NCBI RefSeq assembly: GCF_001618385.1
Contig: NZ_BDCR01000002.1
Span: 186,001-250,000 of the forward strand
Direction: 5' to 3'
Length of the DNA: 64,000 bases
Source: Paludibacter jiangxiensis
Lineage (GTDB): Bacteria; Bacteroidota; Bacteroidia; Bacteroidales; Paludibacteraceae
Positions 2,364-60,229 of this stretch are shown here, piece after piece (the first letter of the stretch is position 1; every line of letters begins with the position of its first letter). The notes beneath the pieces were generated by a model. The model did not search any database, had not been told where the DNA came from, and worked only from the letters and a program-made list of their open reading frames with translations. Both the position numbers and the translations under genes were made by a program.

Positions 2364-2404
2364 GTTACTCACTACTCGTTACTCACCACTCATTACTAAT
2401 TAAT
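2364..2404 (+). repeat. Heptad tract directly upstream of pyrF
   Basis: Six consecutive 7-nt units run up to the pyrF start codon: GTTACTC, ACTACTC, GTTACTC, ACCACTC, ATTACTA and a 6-nt ATTAAT. A TATCTTTG -7-like element at 2294-2301 lies upstream, so the tract should be in the 5' leader. It belongs to a group of period-7 tracts in this window. Confidence 0.7.
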
Positions 2405-3238
2405 ATGACATCTCAAGAACTTTTTGCAAACATCTGCCGTAAAAAATCATTTCTTTGTGTAGGACTGGATACAGACCTGAAAAAAATTCCACAGCACCTG
2501 TTGAATGAGGAGGATCCTATTTTTGCTTTTAACAAGGCAATTATTGATGCAACCGCAGATCTTTGCGTTGCTTACAAACCGAATCTTGCTTTTTACGAAA
2601 GTCTTGGAGTGACAGGTTGGCAGGCGCTCGAAAAAACGGTAAACTATATTCGCGAAAACTATCCCGATCAGTTCCTCATTGCTGATGCCAAGCGCGGCGA
2701 TATTGGGAATACTTCAGAAATGTATGCGCGTACGTTCTTCCAGCATTTCAACTTCGATTCGGTGACTGTGGCGCCTTACATGGGTGAAGATTCGGTCAAA
2801 CCGTTTCTGGGTTACGAAGGGAAATGGGTCATTTTGCTGGCATTGACTTCAAACAAAGGATCGCACGATTTTCAGTTCACACAGGATGAGGGAGGTGAAC
2901 GCCTTTTTGAAAAAGTGCTTCGTAAATCGCAGGAGTGGGGCAGTACAGACACATTGATGTATGTGGTCGGTGCGACACAGGGAAGCATGTTTGCTGATAT
3001 CCGCAAAGTGGCTCCCGAACATTTTCTACTGGTTCCCGGTGTGGGAGCTCAGGGCGGCGATTTGAATGAAGTGTGCAAATACGGGTTGAACAGTAAATGC
3101 GGTCTTATTGTAAACTCTTCTCGTCAGATTTTGTACGCTGCGAAAGATGAAACTTTTGCAGAAGCAGCACGTTGTGAAGCCGGAAAAGTACAGGCCGACA
3201 TGGAGGCTATTCTCCGTAGTAACAATCTGATCGGATAA
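2405..3238 (+). CDS. pyrF: Orotidine 5'-phosphate decarboxylase
   Basis: This 277-residue enzyme converts OMP to UMP, the last step of de novo pyrimidine synthesis. The active-site motif DAKRGDIG is at residues 94-101, with catalytic Lys96. The early [13 protein letters not shown] segment and the late [11 protein letters not shown] segment bind substrate and phosphate. Length and motif are those of the long, type 2 PyrF subfamily. The start at 2405 is chosen because the family begins here, whereas the longer open frame would translate a repeat tract. It stands alone, separate from other pyr genes. Confidence 0.95.
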
Positions 3239-3364
3239 TTTGTCTGTTTACAGCCTTTTACGATTCTTCTGCTTTTTTATAACTGCCAAATTTGCAGTTG
3301 GCTTACCATTTGCAGATATTTGTAAGTAAGAAGAAATTCTTTGTAAACGTAAAAATATAACGCT

Positions 3365-4048
3365 ATGATGATTTATGTGATTTTTGGTGTCTTTGCGCTC
3401 ATAAGCTGGATAGTACAGCAAAGCCTTCAATCGAAATTCAAAAAGTATTCGCAAATTCCTATTCCCAACGGTATGACCGGAAAGGATGTGGCAGAACGCA
3501 TGCTGCGCGAAAACGGGATTTATGATGTAAAGGTTATTTCTGTTGAAGGAGAACTGACCGACCACTATAATCCGGCTAATAAAACGGTAAACCTGAGCGA
3601 ACCTGTTTTTATGAGTAACAGCGTTGCGGCAGCAGCTGTGGCAGCTCACGAATGCGGACACGCTGTGCAACATGCAACGGCCTATGCTCCGTTAAAGATG
3701 CGTTCGGCATTAGTACCTGTTGTGAGCTTTGCTTCCAATTGGGTGCAATGGGTGTTGCTGGGCGGTATCCTGCTGGTGCATACATTTCCGGCGTTGTTGT
3801 TGTTCGGTATCGTTCTTTTTGCCATGACGACTTTGTTCAGCGTGATTACATTGCCGGTGGAAATCAACGCCAGTGCCCGTGCATTGGCATGGCTTAACCG
3901 TTCGGGAATCACCAACGTTTCTACTTACGAACCGGCTAAAGATGCTTTGAAGACGGCGGCTTATACCTATGTGGTGGCAGCCCTCAGCTCTCTGGCAACC
4001 CTTTTCTACTACATTATGATCTTTATGGGTGGCAACCGTCGGGATTAA
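3365..4048 (+). CDS. Neutral zinc metallopeptidase, YugP type
   Basis: This 227-residue membrane protein belongs to the Zn_protease_2/YugP family. A first hydrophobic helix spans about residues 3-20. The zinc-binding motif HECGH is at residues 95-99, with Glu96 as the expected catalytic base. Two or three further membrane helices follow, at about 115-165 and 195-220. The member here is complete and of normal length. Family members are membrane-bound peptidases of unknown physiological substrate. A strong terminator follows at 4072-4113. The overlapping minus-strand frames are shadows. Confidence 0.88.
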   Translation: MMIYVIFGVFALISWIVQQSLQSKFKKYSQIPIPNGMTGKDVAERMLRENGIYDVKVISVEGELTDHYNPANKTVNLSEPVFMSNSVAAAAVAAHECGHAVQHATAYAPLKMRSALVPVVSFASNWVQWVLLGGILLVHTFPALLLFGIVLFAMTTLFSVITLPVEINASARALAWLNRSGITNVSTYEPAKDALKTAAYTYVVAALSSLATLFYYIMIFMGGNRRD

Positions 4049-4071
4049 GCTCTGATCGCTGAAAAAATAGT

Positions 4072-4113
4072 AGCGGCCTTGCAAGCAATACGTTTGCAAG
4101 GCCGCTTTTTTTT
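4072..4113 (+). terminator. Rho-independent terminator after the metallopeptidase gene
   Basis: A 13-bp perfect stem (4072-4084 with 4094-4106, AGCGGCCTTGCAA) closes a 9-nt loop and is followed by eight T. Confidence 0.9.
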
Positions 4114-4223
4114 ATTTGGTGGAAAAACCATTACATTTGAAGAGATTTGTAACACAGCAATCTATGTCGAACAGAATAAGTATGTCTATCAATGAGTCAA
4201 TGCGTAATTAACGTTTACAAAAG

Positions 4224-4637
4224 ATGAGAAAACTGATGTTATTGGCAATGATTTGTTTTTTATCTTGTTCGAAAAACAATAATCAAAAAGAGTTTTTCTT
4301 GACAAATGGAAGCCGTAAATTTTGGAATGTTGTTTATGATTCCCATTTTTATGATAAAAAAAACAGCAAAATATATCCTTTATATTGCTACGTATTTGAT
4401 AAAGATCATAAGTGGCTTTTTTGTGAATATAGACAAGGGGCTTGTGTTTTGTATGATAATGGCGATATTGAGATTCCACCGATCTGGAATTTAGAAGCTG
4501 ATAACTCTATTATACTTGGTTTAAGGTATTGTAAAATAATTAAATTAACGAGGGATTCTCTTATATATGTTTGGAATAGAACCGATAGTGTAGTATTAGC
4601 AAAGAGTTGTAATATTCCAGTTTTACGGATAAAATAA
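4224..4637 (+). CDS. Orphan small lipoprotein
   Basis: I do not recognise this 137-residue protein. It starts with a short lipoprotein-type signal (MRKLMLLAMICFLSCSKN) whose likely lipidated Cys is residue 15, so it is probably anchored in the inner or outer membrane. The rest is rich in Tyr, Asn and Lys and has no known domain that I can see. The DNA is markedly more AT-rich than the flanking housekeeping genes, which suggests recent acquisition. A possible -7 element TACATTTG lies at 4132-4139. The secreted-protein gene at 4712 follows 74 bp downstream and may be co-transcribed. Confidence 0.6.
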   Translation: MRKLMLLAMICFLSCSKNNNQKEFFLTNGSRKFWNVVYDSHFYDKKNSKIYPLYCYVFDKDHKWLFCEYRQGACVLYDNGDIEIPPIWNLEADNSIILGLRYCKIIKLTRDSLIYVWNRTDSVVLAKSCNIPVLRIK

Positions 4638-19993: not shown

Positions 19994-20024
19994 TTGTTCA
20001 AATAAAAAAATAGCAGTACCTTTG
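19994..20024 (+). promoter_or_regulatory. Promoter of the btuB-btuG operon
   Basis: TTG (19994-19996) and TACCTTTG (20017-20024) are separated by 20 nt, a full match to the Bacteroidetes promoter layout. It is placed just upstream of the riboswitch. Confidence 0.75.
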
Positions 20025-20037
20025 TCGTCGCATTGGT

Positions 20038-20270
20038 TCGCTTGTCCGGGTTCCCGGCAGGTGATGAAAAGGGAATCAGGTGTAAGTCCTGAACAGACCC
20101 GCTACTGTAAGTCCTATGCAACGTTTTGGCGCTACTTTAGCCACTGTTTTCAGTCGACAGTACACAGTCGACAGTACACAGATTAATTTCTGAATACTGA
20201 ATACTGAGTACTGAATACTAATTGACGGGAAGGCTGTCCGAAACGGGGATAAGTCAGGAGACCTGCCATG
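20038..20270 (+). ncRNA. Cobalamin riboswitch
   Basis: The conserved segments occur in order: GATGAAAAGGGAAT at 20063-20076, GGTGTAAGTCCTGAACAG shortly after, CCCGCTACTGTAAG at 20098-20111, AGCCACTG at 20139-20146, GGGAAGGC at 20227-20234 and the closing GTCAGGAGACCTGCC at 20253-20267. This is the B12 box layout. It should bind adenosylcobalamin or a related form and lower expression of the downstream uptake genes when B12 is plentiful. The peripheral loop between AGCCACTG and GGGAAGGC is enlarged to about 80 nt by tandem repeats. Confidence 0.92.
20152..20217 (+). repeat. Heptad tandem repeats inside the riboswitch
   Basis: A 14-nt unit (AGTCGACAGTACAC, two related heptads) occurs twice exactly at 20152-20165 and 20166-20179. 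After a 10-nt spacer, four 7-nt units follow at 20190-20217 (CTGAATA, CTGAATA, CTGAGTA, CTGAATA). Confidence 0.85.
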
Positions 20271-20382
20271 CAGTTCACAGTTTAGGCTTTCGAGGAAAGA
20301 GCTTACAACCAAATGAGAATCGGCATAGTTTCCATTTGATTTTTTGCACAACCGCGAAGCTGTTTGTAATTCAAGCAGTTTT

Positions 20383-26174: not shown

Positions 26175-26186
26175 AAGGCTAAATAT

Positions 26187-26221
26187 CAATGGTTAATTGT
26201 TAATTCTTAATGGTTAATAAG
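26187..26221 (-). repeat. Heptad tract upstream of the ABC permease start
   Basis: Five 7-nt units read on the plus strand: CAATGGT, TAATTGT, TAATTCT, TAATGGT and TAATAAG. The tract ends 12 nt upstream of the permease ATG (minus strand). TTAATGGTTAAT at 26207-26218 is the exact reverse complement of 26591-26602. Confidence 0.8.
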
Positions 26222-26227: not shown

Positions 26228-26599
26228 TTACTGTAGGTTTGATTTGGTTGTTTTGAGAATGCTTGTTATCAGTTTGATAAGTTCAATCGCATCGTTATTG
26301 ATGCTATTGAATTGTTCGGAGCTAATATAATCGGTCGCATGTAACAGTTCTAACCAATAAATGGTCTCATTAATTTCTTTTTGAGCTATTGCCATTTTGT
26401 GTTTAAAGTCATTTTTCGTTTCAGCATGTTCGGCTTCGCGAATCATGGCACCAACACTCGTTCCGCTACGTAATAACTGTTTGGATAACACAGATTCCTT
26501 CTTATTTTCAATAAGATACCGCCTGAGATTTACAATTCTTATAGCAAAAACAAAGCTCTTGTCTTTTACGATATTCTCTTTCATATCTTCATTAACCAT
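26228..26599 (-). CDS. Four-helix-bundle protein (S23/IVP family)
   Basis: This 123-residue protein belongs to the four-helix-bundle family first seen in 23S rRNA intervening sequences. Family signatures are SFVFAIRIVNLRRYLIENKK, LSKQLLRSGTSVGAMIREAE, FKHKMAIAQKEINETIYWLE and a late LIKLITSILKT. Its ATG overlaps the last codons of the ABC ATPase gene, and Met6 is an alternative start. It separates the ATPase from its permease and is bordered by 12-bp inverted repeats, so it looks inserted into the operon. The cellular role of the family is unknown. Confidence 0.88.
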   Translation of the reverse strand: MVNEDMKENIVKDKSFVFAIRIVNLRRYLIENKKESVLSKQLLRSGTSVGAMIREAEHAETKNDFKHKMAIAQKEINETIYWLELLHATDYISSEQFNSINNDAIELIKLITSILKTTKSNLQ

Positions 26600-26608
26600 T
26601 AACAGTTT
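26588..26608 (-). repeat. Short heptad tract at the ABC ATPase / four-helix junction
   Basis: On the plus strand the units are TTCATTA, ACCATTA and ACAGTTT. ATTAACCATTAA (26591-26602) is the inverse of 26207-26218. The tract encodes the final residues of the ATPase and holds the start codon of the four-helix-bundle gene. Confidence 0.6.
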
Positions 26609-39200: not shown

Positions 39201-40641
39201 GTGTAATACTCCAGATGACTTTTGGCCCGCTACATCCATTAGAGCTTGCTTGTGAACCATCCGTAGAGTTGTTTGAGAGACAAATAGGTGTGTTAATGCA
39301 AGTTTGTGTCGACGGGAGCGTGTAGTTGGCTTTTGGCGGAGTAGAAATATATATGGGTACGACACTTACAGCAGATGTTCCACAGGGATTGGTAGCTACA
39401 ATTTTAGCATAAAATGAATCAGAATATGTCGTAGAACCGTCAGAGCTTGATGTTCCACAGGACGATTTCAAGAAAGTGTGTGTTACCTGAGATGGTGCTG
39501 GATGATTGAATACCTCAGGAGAAGAACCGTCATTAAATGTAACAGTATAGGTGGTACCTGGTGGGTTATTTTCTGTTCCGGTAATAGGGAAAGTTAAAGG
39601 ACTCGTTATACAAATGTCTGTATTCCCAGGGTTTCCTAGTGAAACCGCCGGATTAGAGCCTACAAAGACAATATATTTCTGAATTGCGATACAACCATTT
39701 GATCCGGTGATTTTATAGGTTAAATTCCATAAACCAGCTGGATAAGTGTGTTTTACGGTGCTCCAGGCTGCGTTTTGAGATAAGGGAGCAGAACCATCCC
39801 CCCATATTATCTCATAAGTGGAGTTAATTGCTGGCGTTGTGGAAAGGTTAGTAAATGTAATTTCTGTAGTTGAATTACTACACGTTTTGAAAGTCTGAAT
39901 GCCATTAAATGTTGTTGATGTTTTATCTGATGTAAGACTGGCATCTGGTATTTTATTTACAGATATTGTTTTAGTAGATATTTGACTGCAGGTTGTTCCA
40001 TTGTCCGTTACCGTTAATTTAACATCGAAATTTTGAGTGTAACTTCCGAATGCCATAAAGGTATGAGAGGGATTTGATTCCGAAGAAGTTGAGCCATCAC
40101 CAAAATTCCAAGAGTACTTATAAGAGCCGGTTCCTGGTGCCGAGGGAGTGAACAGAACCCCATTTCCGGTACATTGATTATCCGTAAAAGCGAAATCCAC
40201 AGTTGGGTTTGCATATACGTTTACAGTAACAGCTTGCGAACTTATATCCACAGGATTATTGTCTTTGTCGGTAACTTTCTTGAGGGTATAAGTGGATATG
40301 CCTGGAGTAGATGTTGGTACATTCAGGGTTACTGTTTCTGTGCCGGATGTTGTAATCGTTAAGTCAGCCCCAGTGTTGATGGTGTATGTGAAAGTGTAGG
40401 GTGCCCCACCTCCTGTCCCTGAGAACGTAATTACAGGCGATACCCCGTTTTGACAGACCGAATTTGAGTTAGCAGATATGCTCGCCGATAATGCTGTTGT
40501 TTGCGCAGAGCTTTTGCTGGTCTGTGTTTGCTTTTGTTTGAAAGATTTCCCGGATGATGATACCCTGTTTATTGCTTGCGTGAGTGTGCTGTAGAGGAAG
40601 ATACAGAGTACAAGATAAATGAGTCTGGCCGGGGATTTCAT
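33259..40641 (-). CDS. Giant SprB-like type IX adhesin (2460 aa)
   Basis: After a signal peptide (about 1-23) come PKD-like domains in the first 800 residues (for example YKYSWNFGDGSTSSESNPSH). Seven Ig-like repeats of about 93 residues follow (about 827-1484), each with QP...C, a YQWYS-type strand and an YYYC-type strand. Then come six clear and one degenerate SprB repeats (about 1600-2150; CYG...G, ISGG, LKPGTYSLVVSD), two more PKD-like domains, and the type B CTD at about 2386-2460 (PNNDGYNDIFLKGWHIKVYN). It should be a long, surface-bound adhesin exported by SprA. A TAACTTTG element at 40804-40797 (minus) may be its promoter. Confidence 0.9.
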   Translation of the reverse strand: MKSPARLIYLVLCIFLYSTLTQAINRVSSSGKSFKQKQTQTSKSSAQTTALSASISANSNSVCQNGVSPVITFSGTGGGAPYTFTYTINTGADLTITTSGTETVTLNVPTSTPGISTYTLKKVTDKDNNPVDISSQAVTVNVYANPTVDFAFTDNQCTGNGVLFTPSAPGTGSYKYSWNFGDGSTSSESNPSHTFMAFGSYTQNFDVKLTVTDNGTTCSQISTKTISVNKIPDASLTSDKTSTTFNGIQTFKTCSNSTTEITFTNLSTTPAINSTYEIIWGDGSAPLSQNAAWSTVKHTYPAGLWNLTYKITGSNGCIAIQKYIVFVGSNPAVSLGNPGNTDICITSPLTFPITGTENNPPGTTYTVTFNDGSSPEVFNHPAPSQVTHTFLKSSCGTSSSDGSTTYSDSFYAKIVATNPCGTSAVSVVPIYISTPPKANYTLPSTQTCINTPICLSNNSTDGSQASSNGCSGPKVIWSITPSDGVVLNSGSLGNDRGSDNTNTWTSGSFSICPVFTIAGTYTITLKEGSNCGIDQKTQTICVEPTPTKPTFDVDKTTGCSPLTSKVTNTITSNTCSTPTYLWKISYTPGFGGTYPAQYTYNSLTVATPTFTFTTPGTYRLSLTVTSACGSITSDTKEIIVKGVPSVSISPIASICGPGSVTPSIYTLEKGTPDTDQPTYNWTFPGGTPATSTQSNPGAIAYNNSGTVSLSVTNECGTSATSTQTVTVKPVPKINNTDLSQTTCSGQPTTAVTLIPDIPGTTFKWSATINNNLKNYITNGTASAIPIQTITNVSTNPQTLSYTITPSLGGCDGTPVTYTITVNPGPSISDQPKSGKACIGDTPAALSVTASNFTGTPAYQWYSNTSSSNSGGTELTEEKSSTFNPPGTPAGTKFYYCKISFEGGCSELATIPAAVTIYDKVSIVLQPKDSKPLCVDGIITTPLSVSVTGGDGFYSYQWHSTPESTPGTLATGSTYTPPPSTIPDTYSYYVIVQSEGSGCAPVTSNTANVKVVDKPTITTQPKASQTLCKKATPDPLTVVANGGINVFAYQWYKCTTNVIGSGTPIDGATSSTYNPATSAVGTLYYYCLVTQPDGAGCYVTSDIATVIVNEAAEIIEQPQSSEVCMNGIATPLSVKYQNGVGTPTYKWYSTNADGTSSASIDYATTDSYIPPTNEVGTKYYYCQIDLPSGGCSTLKSTTATVVVNAIPTIDKQPIPEQKICVGGSSQPLTATYTGGAGTASYQWYENSTESNSGGTAIPGATGASYTPSPFTSAGTKYYYVAIKLSGNNCGSMTSDLAKMIIVDDPTITTQPLTPQTVCQNGNPTALQVEAKDGIGAFYYQWYSNTTDNTSSGSSITGATDATYMPPSAATGITYYYCKITQDGVGCDATSNTAVVTVKKKASFTDEPKQATYCIGETAADLTVAYQDGAGTPDYQWYSTINNDNTSGTAIPGATDSKYKPATNAPGTVYYYCTITFTIDGCSNLVSKPAQITVNPKAVIATKAALICSGTSFTVSPEDKSPDIVPTGTTYMWTNPVISPSGAITGTSAQAAPQTIISQLLTNTGTTPATATYTVTPTSGSCTGNPFSIVVTVNPSIKVVADISHCTCYGSNNGAINCTISGGVPFSSGSPQNIAWTGPDGFTATTTNISNLKPGTYSLVVSDNSPCQFANTYTITEPDDIVISTDSKKDITCHGAHNGSVSISLKGGTLPYSFVWIKDGISYATSEDISNLSPGKYEVTVSDANHCGPKTMSYKIEEPTELTVTLVSQTNILCYGSATGAVSVTATGGTPIKTSPGVLGYNYLWSGPDGYTSTNQNITDLKAGHYTLNVTDQNGCIAILERDLTQNPDIVIEAATTPVTCYGADNASIKLTISGGTAPYKTAWSNLATGTAQDNLSPGDYIITVTDANNCQKSATVTIAPPPVFTIVPVVKNVSCYGANDGSIKLNIKGKPISVVWSDGSTAGNERNNLKPGTYSVKISDGSPCIIDKTFIITEPQPLLVVGHVTDALDCSTVNSGSIALTVSGGTTPYNFIWSNNASTQDITNIQAGNYNVIVSDANNCNLTKQFTVMRPDPINISINAAYDYNCTEHHLYQVFTAKTSGGIPPYQITWSSGSPDATGTSVTTDQSGLISVTVKDSRGCSANVSTSSVIPELGISYKLIDCNKKSYQFDALIVNEATENYSYLWKFGDGSTATTQSVQHQFSSAGIYNVQLTVTGKSCTNIYSKAIMVEAIPTLTIAPEPKLCKGDSITIQASGADIFKWNDGSVSDSLVIRRDGDYSVKGMTTAGCYNTLAFTATYYPSHEYPILSDKNNVTLKDPTINLWSDDHPALYYLWNFGDSSSAGGWKQTHTYNIAKDGYYDILLNTTDMYGCKSTTSKRVWIINDTDLNTFTPNNDGYNDIFLKGWHIKVYNRNGVLVYEGNNGWDGTYKGKLVSPDTYFYIVYYMSANGTKTKEGYVTVVR

Positions 40642-40941: not shown

Positions 40942-43900
40942 TTATCTTGTCAGCAAGAACTTGAAAGTAACACCGAAGTTGGTGGTTGACATCGGATAGG
41001 ACGTTGATATAAGAGGGTTGCTCATGTTGCGGTCGTAGTAAAGCTTGATATTGATCATGGAACTGAATACGTAATCGCCTGACACTTTGATGGTCGTTGT
41101 TGTGCCGCCATCCGTAGGCTGAACGTTGTCGCTTTCAATGTTGCGCATCAGGCTCTTGGTGTCACGTACTGAAAAATCGCATCGCAGGGTCAGATCGTTC
41201 TTTACTTTCGATTGCTTATTCTTCATTTTCAAAATCAGGTTGAAGTCCTTAATCATATAGCCGAAGCCAACAACCCATTCTTTACTCAGTATTTCCATGA
41301 TCTGTGCACTGGTAATATTGAGGCTGAGATTGCGCTGTGTGTTATACATCAGGCGTGTAGATAAGCTGTTCTTTAGAGCTGCATCTACACCAATCAAAGG
41401 CATGAAGGCTTCTGTAAGGGTTACCGACCCGATATTGTATTGCGAAGAAGGAATCGGATTGCCGGTGGTGACATCTTTAATGAAACCCATGCTGCCGTTG
41501 CTTGCCCAGTTGGAATATGAAGTGTATGCTGCAATTGTGTAATCACAGTTGTATGCGTGATTTAATGTTAACGATTTCAGGTATTTGGCTACGATTGGAA
41601 TCGTTGATAGTCCGTCGAATGAAATGCGCCAGTTCGGGAGCGACTGTAAAAGCGAAGGGAACAGTCCCAACTTATTGCCCGAAACAGAATGGCCTCCGTA
41701 TGCCGCAAGAAATGCAGGAATCAAAACATCTGCCGAATTCGGATTGACACTCCCGTTTTTCGAATCGTAAGTGGCTCCGGCTAATACATTTCCTTCCATA
41801 AAGCCGGAATTAGGATAACGTTGTCCGGCATATTTCTGCTCAATCAAACGGGCAACTTCAGCTCTGTTGGATTTGAATTTCCGATAGATTTCGGAGCTGA
41901 AACCATTAGTCGCGTTGCCGCTGCTCTTGAAGAATGTTCCAATGGCGATGTAGCTCATGTGGAAACTGCCGGTATAAGTAGTTGGCATTCCTTTATACAT
42001 GAATTCCATCGACGTTTGTCCGGCCTGGAACCATTTCTGGGCAAGGTCGATTTTGAGTCCCGGAAGCGGTTCAAGATTTAAGCGCGCTTCAAAGTCTTTG
42101 GTGGTTGCAAACGTGGCCGGGTTGATTACGGTGTCATTCGAGATTAGCCATCCTCTATCCAGAGCTTTAGAGACAAAACTTTTGTCAAAGAAGCCGAGGC
42201 TGAAGTCAACGCCGGGCGCTGTGCTTCCCATTAGTGTAGACTGGCCGAACCATTTGCTTGTACCCGCAAAACCAGGCAATGTCAGGTTCTGGCTGTACCG
42301 GTAAGAGATGCTCCCTCTGCGTATCATCATTAAAGTACGCACAGCATAATCAACCAATTGACGGGAAACTCCGGCATCATTTGGATTTTGCGTACTGATA
42401 TTGACGCTGGCGTTTACACGTTTAGTCAGTGGAGCTATTTCAATTGTGTTTGCGTCTACCAGTTTGTATTTCAGGTTGACGGGTTTCCCCAGACTGTCCA
42501 TCGCCGTTATAGTGAACTTGGTCGAATTTAACCGGTGCGTCAGCTTTAAAGGCTTGTCTTTTTCGATGGTTATGTTTTGCCTGAAAGATCGGGGCCGAAA
42601 TTGTTGCGCCCTGTTATTGGAGCTGAACTTCTTGTTGATATCGCTCAGAAACTTAATCTTGTTGTAAAGCATCTCAAAATTAAACTGAGCGTCAGACTGT
42701 GTTTGTGCTGTACTGCTGATCGTGTTTCCGACATTCAGCTTGGATGCCGTTGTTACACCGGTTTGCCAGTCATAGTTTGCCGTGTACTGAATTCGCGCAG
42801 TTGTGAAGTCCAGATAGGGCAATTTGTTGATTGGGAGCGTGTAGTTTGCCGTGAACATCTGTTGGTATAACAACGGACGTCCAAGGTTCGCAAGGCTATG
42901 TTTGATCGAGTCTTTCCAAACTTTGTATTCGTCGGGGAAGAGGTTCTTGTCAACCGGAACATATGGCTCGTCGATGCGCGAATTTGTGCTGGATGAGAAT
43001 GTAAATGACAAACCTCTTGTCAGGTCGAGTTTTACGTCAAACCTCCTGTCCCAAAGGAAATCACGGCTAAACGTCAACAAATCTCTCTTGTCTTGTACTC
43101 CTCCGGCATTGATTACGTCATAGTCCCGTGTCTGAGTTTGAGAATAGGTACGGGTAATGCTGGTGTTGTACGCAATCTGGCTCGGAATGAGATTGATATT
43201 AAATTCGCTGATTAGCTTTAATAGAGGCGACCTCAGGGCTTTCACATTTTTGAATGGTTCCCACGGTTTTGGCATCGTGTTGTATATATAGCTGAATGCC
43301 CCTCGGTAATCGTTCGAATAACTGTAAATCACATCAGGACTTTTATCGCTGGAATGATTGTAAGCGTATGAAAATGAGAAGTTGGCCGGGTCGTACAACT
43401 GAGGCGTTTTACTTCTTATGTCAACTCTGGCATTCGTGATGTTAAAGCTCGTTGTGGTATGCCGGGTTTGGGCAAATGATAAGATAGAGTCACGCTGAGC
43501 CTTCGAAATCGCTGATTTCAAAGCGTCAGACAACAAAATGTCGCCATCCAGCGGATTGTATTTCGGTCGTATAATTTCGTTTGACGTAGAGAAGAATACC
43601 GGAATATTCACCTTCGCTTTTTCCGGGAAGAACTTGCCCAGTTGAACGGTGGTGGATATATTGTATTGATACTCATTGTCCAGACTTCGGCCAAGAATAT
43701 TTTGTTCTATACTTCCAAATCCGGCTGTGACGAACTTCCCTGACGCGTTGATCATTCCCAGATCAGAGAGGGCAACTGATGCGTTTGCCGTTCCGGCCCA
43801 GCCTCCACCTTCTTCAAAATCGTTGAGGCTAAATTCATCAAACCAGACTTCTCCGTTCTTTACGGCACGACTGTTATTCCTGATACCAATCATCACAGAC

Positions 43901-46900
43901 TGAACATCTGCAAGGCTCGGATTTCCAAGAACCGTTACTTTGTTCTTCGGATTGGAGGGATCGTAATACGAATAAGGGGTTGTTAATGTTATACCAGCAT
44001 TGGTCCCCCTTTCGGCATTTCTTTGTTTTTTCAGGTTGGTCAATACCTTCAGCGCAATGTCAAACTCATTGTCGGAAGGCCAAACCGTAGCGCGATCTTT
44101 ATCGCTGCTTTGCTGATAATGCCCTGCATCCGTAAGTTTCAGCGGAATTTCATATTCGTAATAGTTGTTCGTGAAGTCAGATCCCAACCTGATAAACGCT
44201 GTCAGTTCGTAATCTTTCAGGTTAGAGTTGTCGTCCGACACCTTTTGAGCGTGGGCAAACATATGAATGCGCTTGTACTGACGCATATCAAAATTGGTGT
44301 TTTTGTAGATGGCGCGTGCATCATTTGTTGCCAGATTGTTAACTTTCAGGGTGACTGATTGCTCATTTTCCTGACGAATCTGTGGCTGGCTTGGGTCAAC
44401 TTGTCGGGTCACACCCGGAGGTAATACGTAGTTTACAGGCACGCGATTAGCATCTTCTTCTATGTTTACGGCTCCCACGTCAAGATCTCCTGAGACAGCA
44501 GGAGTACTGCCCGAAGTGTATAGTTTTTGAGTATAGGTTCTCCAGTCGCCTTTTACCAGATTCAATGTTCCAAAGCGCAGGAAGGTCGAATCTTCGAAAT
44601 TCTTCAGGAACATCCTCATGAAGCGGATGGACTTGAAGTCGCTGATGGAGCCTATTTTTTTCTGATAGTCACGGATAGGAATTTTGAAATGGAACCAGCT
44701 TACTTTGGTCTGTTTTCCATTTTTCAGCGTTACAGTTGGCGTTATTTTATCCACAAGATAATTGCTGCCTACCTGTAAGTCTCCACGACGGAGAGATACT
44801 TTATACTGATAGTAATTTTCATACTGATTCAACGTATTGTCCTGGTTCAAATCCTCTACGTCGGGTAATGAAGTAGCCGCCGAAGAGTAGTTGGTGGTTG
44901 TGCCGTCATCTGTTGAGTTTCCTTCCGTGCCGTTATAATGCTTGTATCGGTTTAATACCGTGGTTTGACTGGCATTGTATGCCGGATTTCGATAACTTCG
45001 ATAGTTATCTCCTGCGGGGTCGTTTATCGGGGAGAATGGATCGTTTTGCCACTGGCGTAACGTTGCAGCCGAAACAACGGTTTTCAACTGGTCAACGTAA
45101 TTTTTGTATGTAGGGAACGAAAACTCACTCGTTGTCGTCAAACCATCAAGTCCCACATCCTGATACTGACGGGCGCTAGAACTGTTGTCAAATGCCAGAA
45201 CCGTCGATTGCAAAGTAGGAACGCGCCCCCAAACGGTTCTTGTAGTATTGGTGGTGTCTCCAAGAGCAGAAAGACCGTTCTCAAAGAATTTTTTGCCGTC
45301 TTTAAGTATGTCTTCCGAAAGATCTCCAAGGTTGAAATAAAGGTCACCGCCCGTACTTTTACTCAGCGTGTCGTTTACGAATGGATCCATCATCCAGAAG
45401 TCTATATATTCGATGTTGGATGATTCAAAATCAGTCGTTTCCAACTTTCGCATTATCCCGCCCCACCGGCTTTTGGGGTCTTTCAGTTTACCGTTGGCGT
45501 CAATACCTTTGCTGTAACTGGTTGGCATTACGTCAACGTTGTAAGGCCCGCGTTCGGTAGGGTAGTACGATATGTTCAGTACCGGCAAATAAGACGTTGT
45601 TCCATACAATGATTCTCTGTTGGGGAAAATTTCCTGTTCAAGAACCTGTCGGGTTAAGTTGTTGGATTGTAAATCTTTGTTGTTTCTGATATAGTCAGGT
45701 GTCAATGAGGAATTTCCTGAAAATACGGTTTGGTCAACCACAAACCAACTCATCATCGCTCTGTTTTTGCCGTAGTTTACATTGTTGTTTAGAGTCGCTT
45801 CCGGAAATAACGCAGAAGAAGACAAATCAAGAGGTGTGCTGGCAAGGAACCAGTTATAGGGATAAGCCAGTTCTATGTCTGTTTTGGTGCCTTCAAAGTC
45901 GTCTATAAACACCTCTCCTTTTTTGGAAACTGAATTGGGATGTCCGGCAATAAGTTGTGCAAATTCAGCATTTACACTCAGGTATGACGGTTTTGTCAGG
46001 TTGAGCAATGGGATTTTATTCAGCAGGTTTGTCAGCCATAAAGACTCTGTTCTGTACGAAGTGTTCAGACCCCAAATTGTATTTGAAATAGGGTCGCTTC
46101 CGTAAGCCACTTTCTGAGTAAGTGGCAACTCGGACAGGTGCATAATAGTTCCTCCGATGGAGAAATCTTTGCTGAAAGCGTATTCCAGATGCGTTCCGAT
46201 AAGGGTTTTGCGTTGCAGGTCAAACATCGATTGATTTTCCAGCTTCACATTGACATTGGTACCGGATGCAAGGATGCTCTGGTTGATAATGTCTACCGTT
46301 CCCATCATATAGTCAACAGTGTAATCCTGATTTTCAACCAGTGTTTTGCCTCCGGCGGTCACCACTACCGATCCTCTCGGGATGTTCATGGCATTCAGCT
46401 GTATTTGAGAACCGGAAGTGCCCTTGTATTCTCCTACCAGCCTGAATTTGTTCTTGGAACTGTATTGTTGAGCCGTTGTAAGGGTAGAGTCGTATAGCTC
46501 CTGATAAACATATTTTTTGGCAATCACAGGGTTCCCTATTTTGGTTGCAAGATAACTGCCGAAGGGCTCTACTACAGGGAAAATAATTCTCCCGCCATCC
46601 GAAACTGCAGTGTATCCTTCCACATAATCGAAGTTGCCATCCGGATGCGCTTCGTTCTTCGAATCGAGGTTGTCTAAGTTTAATACTCGTGTCAGTTGTT
46701 GACCCTTTATGATGCCTTCGTTGATGTAAGAAACATTGATGCCGGTGGAATCGCTCTCATACATCACGTTCAGTTTGAACTTCTCTTTTTGCATTTGAGA
46801 TGCGCCTACGTTGTAAACGTTTTTCATCATCAACTTCCAGAGAGGAACAGCCGGTGACAGGTTGGTGTTTTTAATCAATTTCACCATGAGCGCTTTAGGT

Positions 46901-48384
46901 GCTTCAATCGGGTCGGAAGAGAATTCACCAACCTGATATGTTTTGCCTCCTGCCGTATATTCATAAGCAACAGCCAGAACTTCATCTGCATTAAGGGCAT
47001 TGCGCAAAGAGACGTATCCAAGGCTCTTGTTAATGGTATATTCTGATGCGTCCAGCTTGCGGGCACTTTCAATTTTTTCGTAATCGCGGCTTCCCACAAT
47101 TCCCATTGATCCGTAAGTAGCATCTAAAATAGTGTTGGAGTTTTGGATGTCGCGGATCCCGGAAAGTGCGGTTACTTCTCCGTACAGAGTGTTCGTTGAG
47201 TTTGACGGATATTTAGTGCCGGAGGTTGTCCAGTGCGGGTTCGAAAGGTTTGTCGTTTCTCCCAGATCGGAGAAAGCAACAATGTTTCTGGCCTGAGTAA
47301 AGTCGCTTCGCTTGTTTGTTACCCAAACTTCTATCCTGTTGATGGTTATCCCTGATGTGACATATGGCAGATTGTTCATCCATTTGTCGAAGTTGTTGCG
47401 AAAGTACTGGGACAGGAAGAAATGCCTGTTGGCATCGTATTTGTCGGCAGCAATATTGAATTTTGTTGTTTGTACGCCACCCTTCGAACTTACCGTTTTG
47501 GTTTGCGACTGTTGCTGAGAAGCTACGGCGACCACATTTAATTTGCCGAATTGTAATTCCGTTTTAATCCCGAACAGGGCAGAACTTCCGGTAATAAGGG
47601 AACTGTTGAGAGGAAGGCTTACATTTCCGGCTTCAATTTTTTTTACAATTTCGTCTTCTTTGCCCGTGTACCCTAACTTGATCATTTTCTGATCGAAATC
47701 GAAAGATGATTCTGTATTGTAATTGAGGTTAAGATTGACTTTATCACCGACTTTCCCGTTTACATTCAGCTGTATTTTTTCATTGAAATCGAAAGAGGGA
47801 GACGGCCTGCGCATTCTGTACGGATAAATCGGATTGTCAATCGTGTGGGCGCGAACACCGAATCCAAGTTCTGCCGATCCCTGCATTTTTACCTGAACGC
47901 CGCCGGGGCCAAACAGTTTGTCGGCCGGACCAAGACTGAATTTCATGTCGGTAAGCGCAAACTTGGAGTCCTCGGTTTTTTGTACTGAATCATTGCGTTG
48001 TCTCCAGTACGATTGCATGGATGTTCGTAAGGTATAGTCCTGATATTCCTGAGGCGTCATGGAGATAGGAGTGGCAATGTCCATTGAGCCGACTTTGGTG
48101 TATACCAGGTATAAACCTGTTACCGGATCATATACAACAGTTGATTTGACGTTGTCCGGGTCTTTCAGGTCCATCGGACGCCGATTGTCCATGTCTGCTA
48201 CGCCGATTGCAGATGTCGGTTTCACAGGAAATAATAAAGAAGAATCTTTCCCGTTTTCGTTGTTATGATCACGGGAAACAGAAGACTCTGTTTTTTGTCC
48301 TGATTGTTGCAATCCGGCCACCGGAAGCGCAGAAATGGCAATAAAACAAAGTGTAAATATGAAGAGTAATATTTTTTTGATCAC
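40942..48384 (-). CDS. sprA: Type IX secretion translocon SprA/Sov
   Basis: This 2480-residue protein is of the size and type of SprA (Sov), the very large outer-membrane barrel through which type IX cargo passes. A signal peptide ends near residue 24. Near the N-terminus is VKSTVVYDPVTGLYLVYTKV, and the MRRPSPSFDFNEKIQLNVNG and GFGVRAHTIDNPIYPYRMRR stretches are typical of the family. The C-terminus ends in amphipathic strands with an aromatic (MSTTNFGVTFKFLLTR). It is 37 bp downstream of ruvA on the same strand. The cargo genes at 29698-40641 follow directly. Confidence 0.93.
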   Translation of the reverse strand: MIKKILLFIFTLCFIAISALPVAGLQQSGQKTESSVSRDHNNENGKDSSLLFPVKPTSAIGVADMDNRRPMDLKDPDNVKSTVVYDPVTGLYLVYTKVGSMDIATPISMTPQEYQDYTLRTSMQSYWRQRNDSVQKTEDSKFALTDMKFSLGPADKLFGPGGVQVKMQGSAELGFGVRAHTIDNPIYPYRMRRPSPSFDFNEKIQLNVNGKVGDKVNLNLNYNTESSFDFDQKMIKLGYTGKEDEIVKKIEAGNVSLPLNSSLITGSSALFGIKTELQFGKLNVVAVASQQQSQTKTVSSKGGVQTTKFNIAADKYDANRHFFLSQYFRNNFDKWMNNLPYVTSGITINRIEVWVTNKRSDFTQARNIVAFSDLGETTNLSNPHWTTSGTKYPSNSTNTLYGEVTALSGIRDIQNSNTILDATYGSMGIVGSRDYEKIESARKLDASEYTINKSLGYVSLRNALNADEVLAVAYEYTAGGKTYQVGEFSSDPIEAPKALMVKLIKNTNLSPAVPLWKLMMKNVYNVGASQMQKEKFKLNVMYESDSTGINVSYINEGIIKGQQLTRVLNLDNLDSKNEAHPDGNFDYVEGYTAVSDGGRIIFPVVEPFGSYLATKIGNPVIAKKYVYQELYDSTLTTAQQYSSKNKFRLVGEYKGTSGSQIQLNAMNIPRGSVVVTAGGKTLVENQDYTVDYMMGTVDIINQSILASGTNVNVKLENQSMFDLQRKTLIGTHLEYAFSKDFSIGGTIMHLSELPLTQKVAYGSDPISNTIWGLNTSYRTESLWLTNLLNKIPLLNLTKPSYLSVNAEFAQLIAGHPNSVSKKGEVFIDDFEGTKTDIELAYPYNWFLASTPLDLSSSALFPEATLNNNVNYGKNRAMMSWFVVDQTVFSGNSSLTPDYIRNNKDLQSNNLTRQVLEQEIFPNRESLYGTTSYLPVLNISYYPTERGPYNVDVMPTSYSKGIDANGKLKDPKSRWGGIMRKLETTDFESSNIEYIDFWMMDPFVNDTLSKSTGGDLYFNLGDLSEDILKDGKKFFENGLSALGDTTNTTRTVWGRVPTLQSTVLAFDNSSSARQYQDVGLDGLTTTSEFSFPTYKNYVDQLKTVVSAATLRQWQNDPFSPINDPAGDNYRSYRNPAYNASQTTVLNRYKHYNGTEGNSTDDGTTTNYSSAATSLPDVEDLNQDNTLNQYENYYQYKVSLRRGDLQVGSNYLVDKITPTVTLKNGKQTKVSWFHFKIPIRDYQKKIGSISDFKSIRFMRMFLKNFEDSTFLRFGTLNLVKGDWRTYTQKLYTSGSTPAVSGDLDVGAVNIEEDANRVPVNYVLPPGVTRQVDPSQPQIRQENEQSVTLKVNNLATNDARAIYKNTNFDMRQYKRIHMFAHAQKVSDDNSNLKDYELTAFIRLGSDFTNNYYEYEIPLKLTDAGHYQQSSDKDRATVWPSDNEFDIALKVLTNLKKQRNAERGTNAGITLTTPYSYYDPSNPKNKVTVLGNPSLADVQSVMIGIRNNSRAVKNGEVWFDEFSLNDFEEGGGWAGTANASVALSDLGMINASGKFVTAGFGSIEQNILGRSLDNEYQYNISTTVQLGKFFPEKAKVNIPVFFSTSNEIIRPKYNPLDGDILLSDALKSAISKAQRDSILSFAQTRHTTTSFNITNARVDIRSKTPQLYDPANFSFSYAYNHSSDKSPDVIYSYSNDYRGAFSYIYNTMPKPWEPFKNVKALRSPLLKLISEFNINLIPSQIAYNTSITRTYSQTQTRDYDVINAGGVQDKRDLLTFSRDFLWDRRFDVKLDLTRGLSFTFSSSTNSRIDEPYVPVDKNLFPDEYKVWKDSIKHSLANLGRPLLYQQMFTANYTLPINKLPYLDFTTARIQYTANYDWQTGVTTASKLNVGNTISSTAQTQSDAQFNFEMLYNKIKFLSDINKKFSSNNRAQQFRPRSFRQNITIEKDKPLKLTHRLNSTKFTITAMDSLGKPVNLKYKLVDANTIEIAPLTKRVNASVNISTQNPNDAGVSRQLVDYAVRTLMMIRRGSISYRYSQNLTLPGFAGTSKWFGQSTLMGSTAPGVDFSLGFFDKSFVSKALDRGWLISNDTVINPATFATTKDFEARLNLEPLPGLKIDLAQKWFQAGQTSMEFMYKGMPTTYTGSFHMSYIAIGTFFKSSGNATNGFSSEIYRKFKSNRAEVARLIEQKYAGQRYPNSGFMEGNVLAGATYDSKNGSVNPNSADVLIPAFLAAYGGHSVSGNKLGLFPSLLQSLPNWRISFDGLSTIPIVAKYLKSLTLNHAYNCDYTIAAYTSYSNWASNGSMGFIKDVTTGNPIPSSQYNIGSVTLTEAFMPLIGVDAALKNSLSTRLMYNTQRNLSLNITSAQIMEILSKEWVVGFGYMIKDFNLILKMKNKQSKVKNDLTLRCDFSVRDTKSLMRNIESDNVQPTDGGTTTTIKVSGDYVFSSMINIKLYYDRNMSNPLISTSYPMSTTNFGVTFKFLLTR

Positions 48385-56868: not shown

Positions 56869-56880
56869 TATGTGAGACGC

Positions 56881-56966
56881 AAGAGCCAGGAACCAAGAGT
56901 CAAGATAATCTGAAATTATCGGTTTTTAGTCTTGAATCCTGGTTCTTGATTCTATAATCTTAAATT
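56881..56966 (+). repeat. Inverted heptad tracts between uxaB and uxaA
   Basis: The left tract (56881-56908) has units AAGAGCC, AGGAACC, AAGAGTC and AAGATAA. The right tract (56926-56960) has TTAGTCT, TGAATCC, TGGTTCT, TGATTCT and ATAATCT, ending 6 nt before the uxaA ATG. The two arms are imperfectly complementary (56880-56900 against 56928-56948, about 17 of 21 positions), so the transcript can fold into a hairpin. Confidence 0.75.
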
Positions 56967-58460: not shown

Positions 58461-58483
58461 GTGTTCGTTTGATAAATGATGGG

Positions 58484-58563: not shown

Positions 58564-58612
58564 CATAACATTTCTATTTGGTCAATTTCTTAATCTCTAT
58601 AAATTATATTTT

Positions 58613-58894: not shown

Positions 58895-58917
58895 CCGGCA
58901 AACTGCATAAATATTTG

Positions 58918-58953
58918 AAAATGGGTAAGGCAACCGCGCTTTGCCCATTTTTC
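58918..58953 (+). terminator. Terminator after ppnP
   Basis: AAAATGGGTAAGGC (58918-58931) pairs with GCTTTGCCCATTTT (58938-58951), with two G-U pairs and a 6-nt loop, then T residues. Confidence 0.85.
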
Positions 58954-59011
58954 TTATTGTATTATAGATAAATATGCAGTTGTGACGATTCGGTCGAAAA
59001 GTGCTTTTTTG

Positions 59012-59042
59012 TTGTTAATCAGCTTGGATTGTCGTAACTTTG
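59012..59042 (+). promoter_or_regulatory. Promoter of thiL
   Basis: TTG (59012-59014) and TAACTTTG (59035-59042) are separated by 20 nt. The predicted start of transcription is about 90 bp before the thiL ATG, so the heptad tract at 59104-59138 lies in the leader. Confidence 0.65.
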
Positions 59043-59103
59043 CACTCTCTTTTGGAAATAGGAAAATGAGTTTGGATCATTATTGTGTGATCCTTATCTG
59101 TCA

Positions 59104-59145
59104 TTTGTCTTTATTCCTTGTTCTTTACTCTTTGTTCTGAAATAT
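59104..59145 (+). repeat. Heptad tract directly upstream of thiL
   Basis: Five units (TTTGTCT, TTATTCC, TTGTTCT, TTACTCT, TTGTTCT) and a sixth, GAAATAT, run in phase to the ATG at 59146. TTGTTCTTTACTCTTTG at 59118-59134 recurs exactly at 60198-60214, downstream of thiL. Confidence 0.85.
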
Positions 59146-60180
59146 ATGCCTCAACGTACAGAAATAGCTACTCTTGGAGAGTTCGGATTAATCGATCATC
59201 TCACCAAACAGTTTTCAATCACTAATCCTTCGACCGAAAAAGGGGTGGGGGACGATGCCGCCGTGCTGTCGTATCCCGATAAGAAGGTGTTGGTGACTAC
59301 CGATCTGTTGCTTGAAGGGATTCATTTCGATCTGGTTTACGTCCCCCTGAAACATTTGGGGTACAAAGCTGCCGTGGTCAATTTTTCCGATATTTATGCA
59401 ATGAACGGAGCTCCGAAGCAACTTACGGTTTCGATGGGGATTTCCAAACGCTTTTCGGTGGAAGATATCGATGATTTTTATGCCGGATTGAAATTAGCCT
59501 GCGAACGTTACGGCGTCGATTTGGTGGGAGGCGATACCTCGGCATCGGTAACCGGTCTTTCCATTTCCATTACTTGTGTGGGAGAGGTCGACTCCGATAA
59601 AGTTGTTTACAGAAACACGGCCAATGAAAACGATATTATTTGCGTAACCGGCGATCTGGGTGCAGCCTACATGGGCTTGCAACTGCTCGAACGCGAAAAA
59701 ATAGCTTTTAGTGGTCAGGAAGATTTTCAACCAGACTTCAAGGGAAAAGATTATCTTCTCGAACGTCAGTTGAAACCGGAAGCCCGCAAAGAAATCATTG
59801 AAGCTCTTGCTAATAAAAATGTTGTGCCGACTTCGATGATTGATATTTCGGATGGCCTGTCGTCGGACATGTTGCATATCTGTACCCAAAGCAAAAAAGG
59901 ATGCCGCATTTACGAAGACCGTCTGCCGATCGATTATCAGACAGCCGTGATGGCCGAAGAGCTCAATATGAACCTGACCACCGCTGCCATGAACGGAGGT
60001 GAAGATTATGAACTGTTGTTTACCGTTCCGGCATCTCAACATGATGATGTAGTTGCCATCGAAGGGGTAAAAGTAATCGGATATATAGCCAAAGAAGATT
60101 TGGGTTGCGCTCTGATAACCCGCGATGGTCAGGAATTTCCCATCAAAGCCCAAGGATGGAATATCAATGATGCAATTTGA
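59146..60180 (+). CDS. thiL: Thiamine-phosphate kinase
   Basis: This 344-residue enzyme phosphorylates thiamine monophosphate to thiamine diphosphate. The N-terminal LGEFGLIDHLTKQF is the family opening, VGDDAAVL binds Mg-ATP, and TTDLLLEGIHFDL plus GGDTSASVTGLSISITCVGE follow. SMIDISDGLSSDM and NGGEDYELLF close the active site. The ATG at 59146 is used because the longer frame would translate a repeat tract. It has its own promoter and is flanked on both sides by the same heptad repeat. No thi operon is adjacent. Confidence 0.94.
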   Translation: MPQRTEIATLGEFGLIDHLTKQFSITNPSTEKGVGDDAAVLSYPDKKVLVTTDLLLEGIHFDLVYVPLKHLGYKAAVVNFSDIYAMNGAPKQLTVSMGISKRFSVEDIDDFYAGLKLACERYGVDLVGGDTSASVTGLSISITCVGEVDSDKVVYRNTANENDIICVTGDLGAAYMGLQLLEREKIAFSGQEDFQPDFKGKDYLLERQLKPEARKEIIEALANKNVVPTSMIDISDGLSSDMLHICTQSKKGCRIYEDRLPIDYQTAVMAEELNMNLTTAAMNGGEDYELLFTVPASQHDDVVAIEGVKVIGYIAKEDLGCALITRDGQEFPIKAQGWNINDAI

Positions 60181-60194
60181 TATATCTTTAATTG

Positions 60195-60229
60195 TCTTTG
60201 TTCTTTACTCTTTGATCTTTGTTCTAATA
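60195..60229 (+). repeat. Heptad tract downstream of thiL
   Basis: Five units read TCTTTGT, TCTTTAC, TCTTTGA, TCTTTGT and TCTAATA. The tract shares a 17-bp exact match with the tract upstream of thiL. Confidence 0.85.

What the first reader, a model, noticed from the sequence alone, without database searches (positions are those of the whole stretch)
2364..60229. Period-7 degenerate tandem repeats placed right before start codons
At least seven tracts in this window (2364-2404, 20152-20217, 26187-26221, 26588-26608, 56881-56960, 59104-59145, 60195-60229) differ in unit sequence but all have a 7-nt period and usually 4-6 units. In four cases (pyrF, uxaA, thiL, ABC permease) the tract ends 0-12 nt from an ATG, so it lies in the 5' leader. 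Upstream units often share a nnTCnnn pattern. This resembles the architecture of heptanucleotide STRR repeats of heterocystous cyanobacteria. It might be a translation-related leader element, or a mobile or slippage-prone repeat, in a phylum with few Shine-Dalgarno sites.
Basis: partly seen in the sequence, partly recalled or inferred. Interest (0 to 1): 0.72.

Follow-up and report, generated by a model that had tools for sequence, protein, structure and literature searches.

The report
Seven-base repeats framing IVS-type elements
The short seven-base repeats sitting between genes appear to be the paired arms, or left-over arms, of small hairpin elements built around one protein gene, and the same pairing of repeats and gene occurs in several distant bacterial groups.

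Summary
The period-7 tracts are real. In a 404-kb sample of the genome, intergenic repeats pile up at lags 7 and 8 and their multiples, and end near start codons more often than random placement (18 of 38 against 6.4). They are not primarily leader elements. The tract at 26177-26218 is one arm of an element whose short other arm is 26585-26608 and whose loop holds a PF05635 gene (23S rRNA intervening-sequence protein, S23p). All six PF05635 genes of the genome, 59 of 69 in this and related genomes (control genes: 28 of 309) and 19 of 20 fetched plasmid loci from five phyla have period-7 or -8 flanks, often inverted complements; units differ between loci. ORF-less hairpins (one inside a cobalamin riboswitch, absent from three relatives) and single tracts share units with these arms. 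Elements are present, absent, decayed or replaced as wholes at the same junctions. Arms hold about five units whether the period is 7 or 8; S23p is reported as a homopentamer. I read this as an IVS-type element outside rRNA and a likely source of STRR-like heptamer arrays; how it moves is unknown.

The parts
26177..26218 (-).
   Evidence: TRF; lag-7 score 14; an inverted match within 700 nt that none of 60 random windows reached; same site in G001 and G003
26228..26584 (-). PF05635 / TIGR02436 gene (23S rRNA intervening-sequence protein, S23p, four-helix bundle) in the loop; the in-frame ATG at 26584 is my choice, the ORF opens at 26599
   Evidence: Pfam E 7e-27, NCBIfam 92.8 bits, PDB 2rld E 7e-42 with five chains
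26585..26608 (-). short 5' (left) arm, about two heptads; it overlaps the stop codon of the upstream ORF 26592-27494
   Evidence: sequence, ORF list; complementarity 14 to the right flank with ATG at 26584, but 8, at control level, with the ORF start at 26599
20151..20219 (+). ORF-less heptad hairpin (arms 20151-20181 and 20190-20219) inside a cobalamin riboswitch
   Evidence: TRF; RNA fold z -4.1 for 20136-20232; units differ between G000, G006 and the G001/G003 pair, absent in G004, G005 and G007
20017..20283 (+). cobalamin riboswitch that hosts the hairpin
   Evidence: RF00174, 85.1 bits
56881..56960 (+). ORF-less hairpin with degenerate heptad arms (CAAGAGC / CTTGATTC) before the 56967 ORF; other repeats stand at this place in G001 and L022 (by eye)
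   Evidence: RNA fold z -4.6 for 56876-56966; the same unit family frames the IVP gene of L142
2364..2405 (+). single heptad tract (right-arm type) ending at the start codon at 2405
   Evidence: TRF; best match to arms of IVP locus L137 in the same genome, score 25; changed in the same position of nearly every unit in G001; not seen in G004, G005 and G007
59104..59145 (+). single heptad tract (CTTTGTT/CTTTACTC) ending just before the start codon at 59146
   Evidence: TRF; best match to arms of IVP locus L143 of G001, score 23, own-genome best only 12; mainly point changes in relatives
60195..60229 (+). single heptad tract of the same unit family, 14 nt after a stop codon
   Evidence: TRF; L143 arms score 23, own-genome best only 10; octads in G001 and other heptads in L022 at this place, by eye

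Best explanation
The period-7 (and period-8) tracts are the arms, or left-over arms, of small IVS-type elements: an array of about five units, a PF05635/S23p gene, and the inverted array. The whole sits between two protein genes instead of inside 23S rRNA. ORF-less hairpins and single arms are non-autonomous or decayed members. Shown here: the anatomy, its recurrence in several phyla, whole-element presence and absence at the same junction, one decayed copy with arms and a gene remnant, replacement of the whole block between conserved neighbours, and unit sharing between ORF-less tracts and arms. Inferred: the arms pair in the transcript and are cut like the stem of rRNA IVSs (RNase III), which makes insertion tolerable; the homopentameric S23p ring binds the array one unit per subunit, which would fix the period and the unit number; element spread gives dispersed arrays, and rapid unit turnover (slippage within an arm, copying between arms) makes every locus look different. 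The route of insertion is not known.
For: All 6 PF05635 genes of the genome have flanking repeat arms (output partly cut, the arms were in view; five period 7, one period 8). 69 loci from 21 genomes (77 matches; 7 weak or partial ones not taken, one without a stop codon dropped): 42 period 7, 17 period 8, 10 without call; the same rule of 309 own genes period 7 or 8. Flank segments of 12 or more: lag 7 27/24 (up/down), lag 8 12/13, others 0-2 apart from multiples. Inverted score of 18 or more: 38 of 69 IVP loci against 0 of 309 called genes; above the 99% swapped-partner control: 24 of 69. Plasmids: lag 7 in 17 of 20 upstream and 18 of 20 downstream flanks against 11 of 240 control windows in the same loci. 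Same junction filled in some species, empty in others, decayed in one; riboswitch hairpin present in 4 and absent in 3 of the 7 loci that could be read, 3 further loci not parsed. Block replacement with sharp edges. ORF-less tracts match own-genome arms best on average: 13.97 against 12.59 (G001), 11.95 (G006), 11.09 (G008), 10.95 (farther). Arm lengths differ between period 7 and 8 in nt (p 0.003) but not in units (medians 4.7 and 4.9, p 0.45). Tract density rises with PF05635 copy number (rho 0.46, p 0.0008; p 0.002). A 23S IVS of this protein family also has tandem heptamers before the gene, and S23p of Xanthomonas is reported as a toroidal homopentamer (PMC4990558, passages).
Against: 10 of 69 loci get no period-7 or -8 call (one has period 10) and 1 of 20 plasmid loci has a plain inverted repeat instead. 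The window's own element is a weak case: its left arm is about two units and its inverted score is 8 or 14 depending on the start codon chosen. In 30 phylum-wide loci (the best matches, not a random draw) the signal is weaker: lag 7 in 9 up and 6 down, 10 of 30 inverted above the 99% control. Unit sequence follows protein similarity only above about 55% identity; the overall correlation is weak (0.11; permuted sd 0.06, maximum 0.17). Arms agree within a locus more than between species in only 18 of 31 same-site pairs. 16 of 36 plasmid arms are 53 nt or longer, up to 357. The second density test is confounded by G+C (39% against 53%) and the first rests on few segments, four of them from one locus. 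GxxExxY genes also have inverted arms, so arms are not unique to PF05635. No insertion event, binding or RNA cleavage was observed.
Confidence: 0.75

Rival explanations
1. Slippage only: DNA polymerase slippage with a preferred 7-nt step makes degenerate arrays in unconstrained intergenic DNA; the PF05635 gene is an incidental passenger.
For: Period-7 and -8 arrays are nearly confined to intergenic DNA; heptamers are the most abundant category of such repeats in most repeat-rich genomes and a polymerase footprint was proposed (Mrazek et al., as cited in PMC4679880, passage); concerted change in the pyrF tract fits array turnover.
Against: Inverted flanks in 38 of 69 IVP loci and 0 of 309 other genes; the tie recurs across phyla; whole-element empty sites; in genomes without PF05635 tract density is at the level of control lags (10.9 per Mb) or lag 7 is absent (0 in 360 kb).
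Confidence: 0.1
2. Leader or translation element: arrays upstream of start codons are selected as unstructured or protein-binding leaders (S1, cold-shock or CsrA-type proteins), as proposed for TAACTGA repeats of Beggiatoaceae.
For: Start-codon enrichment (18 of 38 against 6.4); the pyrF and thiL tracts do not fold; earlier proposal in PMC4679880 (abstract and passages).
Against: Arms also follow stop codons and pair with an inverted partner; the hairpin in the riboswitch; units and even period change between species at one gene; no tract seen before pyrF in G004, G005 and G007.
Confidence: 0.08
3. Host-domesticated regulator: S23p is a chromosomal RNA-binding protein and dispersed heptad arrays are its regulon; elements are kept for regulation rather than being selfish.
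For: Some IVP genes are kept at one site across genera or families with 56-72% identity (L137/L196, L189/L195); ORF-less tracts share units with own-genome arms.
Against: Sister species swap or lack elements at the same sites. Functions of the neighbouring genes were not tested systematically.
Confidence: 0.12

Closest known systems
23S rRNA intervening sequences (IVS) with an S23p/PF05635 ORF, e.g. that of Coxiella burnetii (PMC4990558; abstract and passages seen)
   Same: PF05635 ORF in the loop of a hairpin, described there as a selfish element; tandem heptamers before the ORF; scattered distribution
   Different: Here between protein genes, or ORF-less in a riboswitch, not in rRNA; several copies per genome; heptads or octads in both arms; ORF-less relatives dispersed
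STRR heptanucleotide repeats of heterocystous cyanobacteria (name and units recalled; only search listings seen)
   Same: Heptamer tandem arrays, intergenic, scattered; arrays of this type frame PF05635 genes on Nostoc-group plasmids
   Different: As I recall, STRRs are described by fixed unit sequences and without a partner gene; here the unit differs per locus and the partner gene is the constant
TAACTGA repeats of Beggiatoaceae, cyanobacteria and five Bacteroidetes including Paludibacter propionicigenes (PMC4679880; abstract, section 12 and passages)
   Same: Heptamer direct repeats, in one genome mostly close to start codons; few SD sites; indels mostly in 7-nt steps between two strains
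   Different: One fixed unit; no link to PF05635 in what I read
GGGAATC heptamers of Xanthomonas and GGGGA(C/T)T of Nostoc (PMC4692102; passages)
   Same: Most common array size is four units; 70 and 75 cases of two arrays in convergent, inverted orientation close together
   Different: Studied there as G-quadruplex repeats; no partner gene named in the passages seen
REP/BIME sequences with RAYT transposases (recalled)
   Same: Dispersed hairpins in intergenic DNA linked to one protein family
   Different: Conserved palindrome and catalytic transposase; here no conserved unit and a four-helix bundle without known catalysis

Membership tests
23S rRNA IVS element | encodes PF05635/S23p protein in the loop | tested here: met
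23S rRNA IVS element | ends complementary, forming a stem | tested here: met
   met for the class (inverted flanks; ORF-less hairpin folds); weak for the window element itself
23S rRNA IVS element | inserted in a helix of 23S (or 16S) rRNA | tested here: not met
   protein-gene junction; the only Rfam match in the window is a riboswitch
23S rRNA IVS element | excised from the transcript by RNase III | not testable with these tools
   needs RNA data
STRR heptamer repeats | tandem heptamers in intergenic DNA at many places of one genome | tested here: met
STRR heptamer repeats | a fixed unit sequence shared by all arrays | tested here: not met
   several unit families per genome
TAACTGA repeats | unit TAACTGA | tested here: not met
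   units listed are mainly others
REP/RAYT system | Y1 transposase (TnpA-REP) beside conserved palindromes | not tested
   partner gene is PF05635; no search for TnpA-REP was made
Diversity-generating retroelement | reverse transcriptase with template and variable repeats beside Avd | not tested
   PF05635 resembles Avd according to PMC10053308 (passages); no RT search was made

The most novel reading that the evidence does not exclude
Bacterial heptamer arrays (STRR-like, TAACTGA, GGGAATC and others) are largely produced and spread by one small pentameric protein family, PF05635/S23p: each ring binds about five tandem units, one per subunit, on the RNA or single-stranded DNA of a hairpin element, and the element is copied into gene junctions and RNA hairpin loops without a classical transposase. 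Period (7, 8, perhaps 10) is set by the protein subfamily, unit sequence is free to drift, and ORF-less arrays are its non-autonomous offspring. A parallel system uses GxxExxY nuclease-fold proteins with arms of another period.
Probability: 0.3. Interest if true: 0.92.

Novelty: new variant of a known kind. Interest (0 to 1): 0.8.

Why it matters
Heptanucleotide arrays have been reported in cyanobacteria, Beggiatoaceae, Xanthomonas and others (PMC4679880, PMC4692102, passages) without, as far as I saw, an agreed origin, and S23p proteins are said to have no known function (PMC4990558). Tying the two together gives the arrays a candidate agent and the protein a candidate substrate, both testable with one purified protein and one oligonucleotide. 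It would also mean that IVSs are not rRNA oddities but the visible tip of a genome-wide element class that settles in operons and riboswitches and may cut their transcripts.

Tried and rejected
Translation-leader reading: tested by start-codon placement and relatives, kept only as a minor rival.

Slippage-only reading: rejected as sufficient because of the PF05635 tie and inverted pairing.

Helical phasing: periods 7 and 8 without a peak at 10 or 11 do not fit the DNA helix.

A strict unit-to-protein code: not supported (weak correlation).

Concerted change of both arms as a universal rule: only 18 of 31 same-site pairs. For the most different pairs whole-element replacement explains it better, since IVP identity is 57-66% where both flanking genes are nearly identical.

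GxxExxY (PF13366) genes: inverted arms too (mean 17.5 against 9.4 for swapped partners, 12 of 28 above the 99% control; direct similarity is also high, 15.0), but lag 7 reaches 12 in none of 28 on either side. 28 of 31 matches analysed: one gave no locus, two halves of one broken copy left out.

PF05635 counts over the cut-off were counted by hand. Density test 2 used 19 stretches from genomes with five or more copies and 18 without any; a 17-base and a 1778-base stretch were dropped and one stretch did not exist. In that test lag 13 was also higher (4 against 0).

The tree test of period against protein used 62 of 69 proteins; the label is clustered (period 8 needs 7 changes, shuffled mean 12.1), but near-copies help this.

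Junctions that were not simply filled or empty: in G006 the first ABC-exporter junction holds another gene, not an element; in G001 the third holds a decayed element.

Three lists were cut (20 of 109, 20 of 82, 10 of 106). Eight papers were opened, by passages or abstract only, with one section of PMC4679880; none was read whole.


Full report
1. The tracts. TRF on the window lists period-7 or -14 arrays at five of the seven places. A segment scan of lags 4-24 at a strict threshold finds lag 7 or 14 at four of them, plus a single lag-12 segment elsewhere. To see whether this is a genome trait I took 17 stretches of 20 kb (the whole genome was not available as a file). In 404 kb with 326 called genes, intergenic segments appear at lags 7 (18), 8 (6), 14 (15), 15 (5), 16 (3) and 21 (5), at other lags from 5 to 22 at most 2; in coding DNA the main peaks are multiples of three. 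After merging (lower threshold) there are 38 intergenic tracts, of which 18 end within 40 nt upstream of a start codon; the null is 6.4 with a maximum of 13 in 300.

2. The partner gene. The tract at 26177-26218 has a short inverted partner at 26585-26608, and between them on the minus strand lies a PF05635 gene, also TIGR02436 'four helix bundle protein' and a close match of PDB 2rld, which has five chains. The window element is itself a weak example: its left arm has about two units, and the complementarity of its flanks is 8 (control mean 9.1) or 14 (control 95% level) depending on which start codon is taken. The genome holds six PF05635 genes; reading the six loci showed repeat arms on both sides, with several different unit families (output partly cut; one search calls five period 7 and one period 8). 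Across 21 genomes the family search gave 77 matches in 17 genomes. I analysed 69 loci, own six included (7 weak or partial matches not taken, one without a stop codon dropped). The flanks have segments of 12 or more at lag 7 in 27 upstream and 24 downstream cases and at lag 8 in 12 and 13; lags 14, 16 and 21 follow, other lags have 0-2. By locus: 42 period 7, 17 period 8, 10 without call, one of them with a lag-10 signal; the same rule applied to 309 called genes of the own genome gives 23 period 7, 5 period 8 and 10 of other periods. Upstream flanks are complementary to downstream flanks: mean score 18.8 against 9.1 for swapped partners, 24 of 69 above the 99% control, 4 of 69 for direct similarity; 38 of 69 reach 18, against 0 of 309 called genes.

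3. Other phyla. tblastn of the window protein against plasmids gave 26 records, 21 of them cyanobacterial. I fetched 20: 15 cyanobacterial, 2 Chloroflexota, one each labelled Bernardetia, Treponema and Monoglobus. Lag 7 reaches 12 in 17 upstream and 18 downstream flanks, lag 14 in 16 and 14, lag 12 in one, no other lag from 4 to 17; inverted mean 27.6 against 12.0. Control windows in the same loci: 11 of 240. One locus (L242) has a plain long inverted repeat without period 7. The genes often split an operon: hsdS|IVP|hsdR, drmD|IVP|mmeI, DUF1156|IVP|Swt1, and, on the opposite strand, cas2|IVP|cas1 (annotations). In 50 kb of one Nostoc plasmid lag 7 has nine segments, other lags mostly 0-1, with 4 at lag 14 and 2 at lag 21. 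A phylum-wide draw (118 genomes, 87 with a match over cut-off) gave the 30 loci that the tool hands out for the best matches: lag 7 in 9 and 6, lag 8 in 4 and 4, otherwise only lags 14 and 16 and one lag 6; inverted 15.5 against 9.1, 10 of 30 above the 99% control. The signal is weaker there but of the same kind.

4. Presence, absence and replacement. Same-site comparison and reading of the sites show one ABC-exporter operon with three junctions. The first carries an element in G005 and G007 and none in G001 and G008 (in G006 another gene lies there). The second has it in G006 and G001, is empty in G007 and G008, and has an ORF-less repeat tract in G005. The third has it in G006 and G008, has a spacer without repeats in G007, has stop and start codon two bases apart in G005, and in G001 has a decayed element: both arms and only a short remnant of the gene. 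That last case is a direct intermediate between element and ORF-less tract. The cobalamin riboswitch carries the heptad hairpin in G000, G001, G003 and G006 (units differ between G000, G006 and the G001/G003 pair), while G004, G005 and G007 have a short plain loop at that place; three further loci could not be parsed. The pyrF tract is present in G000, G001 and G003, weak in G006, not seen in G004, G005 and G007, and G008 shows another heptad run there by eye. At 56881 and 60195 the relatives hold other arrays, octads among them, by eye. Between G000 and G001 at one site (glyA and phoH by my reading, no call) the flanking genes are mostly 86-96% identical in DNA, the arms about 30-50%, the IVP proteins 65%, and the period changes from 7 to 8, with edges at the stop and the start codon; G003 and G001 at a second site show 90-100% flanks and 57% IVP identity. 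The G003 protein there is closer (72%) to that of G020, a different family, than to its sister species. Orthologues at other sites in the same species pairs keep 88-100%. So blocks seem to be swapped, not only mutated; I cannot exclude very fast local divergence in single cases.

5. ORF-less tracts belong to the same families. The 37 tracts other than the arm 26177 match arms of own-genome IVP loci best on average (13.97), then G001 (12.59), G006 (11.95), G008 (11.09) and farther genomes (10.95); shuffled tracts give 7.7. The pyrF tract goes with L137; among own arms the riboswitch hairpin goes with L133; the thiL and 60195 tracts fit no own arm (12 and 10) but L143 of G001 (23 and 23). Tract density follows PF05635 number: 10.9 per Mb with none (the same as control lags 10 plus 11), 30 with one to three, 75 with four or more (50 genomes, rho 0.46, p 0.0008; control lags 10, 11 and 13: 0.16, not significant). 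In a second set lag 7 has 13 segments in 380 kb against 0 in 360 kb, p 0.002 for lags 7 plus 8, but G+C differs between the sets.

6. Mechanism. Shown: anatomy, inverted arms, presence, absence, decay and swap, shared units. The two ORF-less hairpins of the window fold with z -4.1 and -4.6; the pyrF and thiL tracts do not fold. Period-7 arms have a median of 33 nt (n 64) and period-8 arms 39 nt (n 29): different in length (p 0.003), alike in unit number (4.7 and 4.9, p 0.45). Arms were sought within 150 nt of the gene and needed a score of 10, which limits both ends of the range. S23p of Xanthomonas is reported as a toroidal homopentamer, a 23S IVS carries tandem heptamers before its S23p gene, and the RNase III site lies at the first of them (PMC4990558, passages). 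From this I infer a ring that reads one unit per subunit and a stem cut in the transcript. Not shown: binding, cutting, or how the element is copied. Long cyanobacterial arrays (16 of 36 plasmid arms of 53 nt or more) need either several rings or free growth by slippage.

7. Known or new. The protein family, rRNA IVSs and heptamer arrays are each known. What I did not find in the held papers (searches, partly cut lists) is the link: PF05635 genes outside rRNA framed by heptamer arrays, and arrays as offspring of such elements. The defining site of an IVS (rRNA) was tested and not met, so I call it IVS-type, a new variant, not an rRNA IVS. Independent hints: paired inverted heptamer arrays in Xanthomonas (PMC4692102) and heptamers in Paludibacter propionicigenes (PMC4679880), a genus named among the close relatives here.

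8. Limits.

Recounting raised the number of cyanobacterial plasmid loci from 13 to 15, added the control for the period rule, the weak score of the window element and the decayed copy. These changes cut both ways and I left the odds as they were.

Noticed in passing
L014:12082-12486 (G000:C3) and L206-L235: GxxExxY (PF13366, PD-(D/E)XK fold) genes also sit between inverted quasi-repeat arms, without period 7; at one junction the own genome has a GxxExxY gene where G006 has a PF05635 gene.
   Followed up: partly
L188 (G006:C1:161926-162243): A divergent, longer PF05635 protein whose flanks show period 10 instead of 7 or 8.
   Followed up: no
L181:1595-2207 (G001:C6, reverse strand): A decayed element: both heptad arms remain, with only a short remnant of the PF05635 gene and other sequence between them.
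   Followed up: partly
L241, L250: In Nostoc plasmids the PF05635 gene stands before XisH/XisI (or XisI alone) and an integrase gene; XisH/XisI were earlier noted to have a distribution similar to that of TAACTGA repeats.
   Followed up: no
window 33259-40641 and 40942-48384: Two very long neighbouring ORFs (2460 and 2480 aa); in G001 the aligned sequence lacks the first one.
   Followed up: no
window 60241-60330: A further short palindromic insert before the 60335 ORF, absent in G001 and L022; a stretch that looks similar by eye lies beside L185 in G006.
   Followed up: no
window 59060-59100: A small hairpin in the thiL leader that, by eye, keeps pairing while its letters change in L022 and L023.
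   Followed up: no
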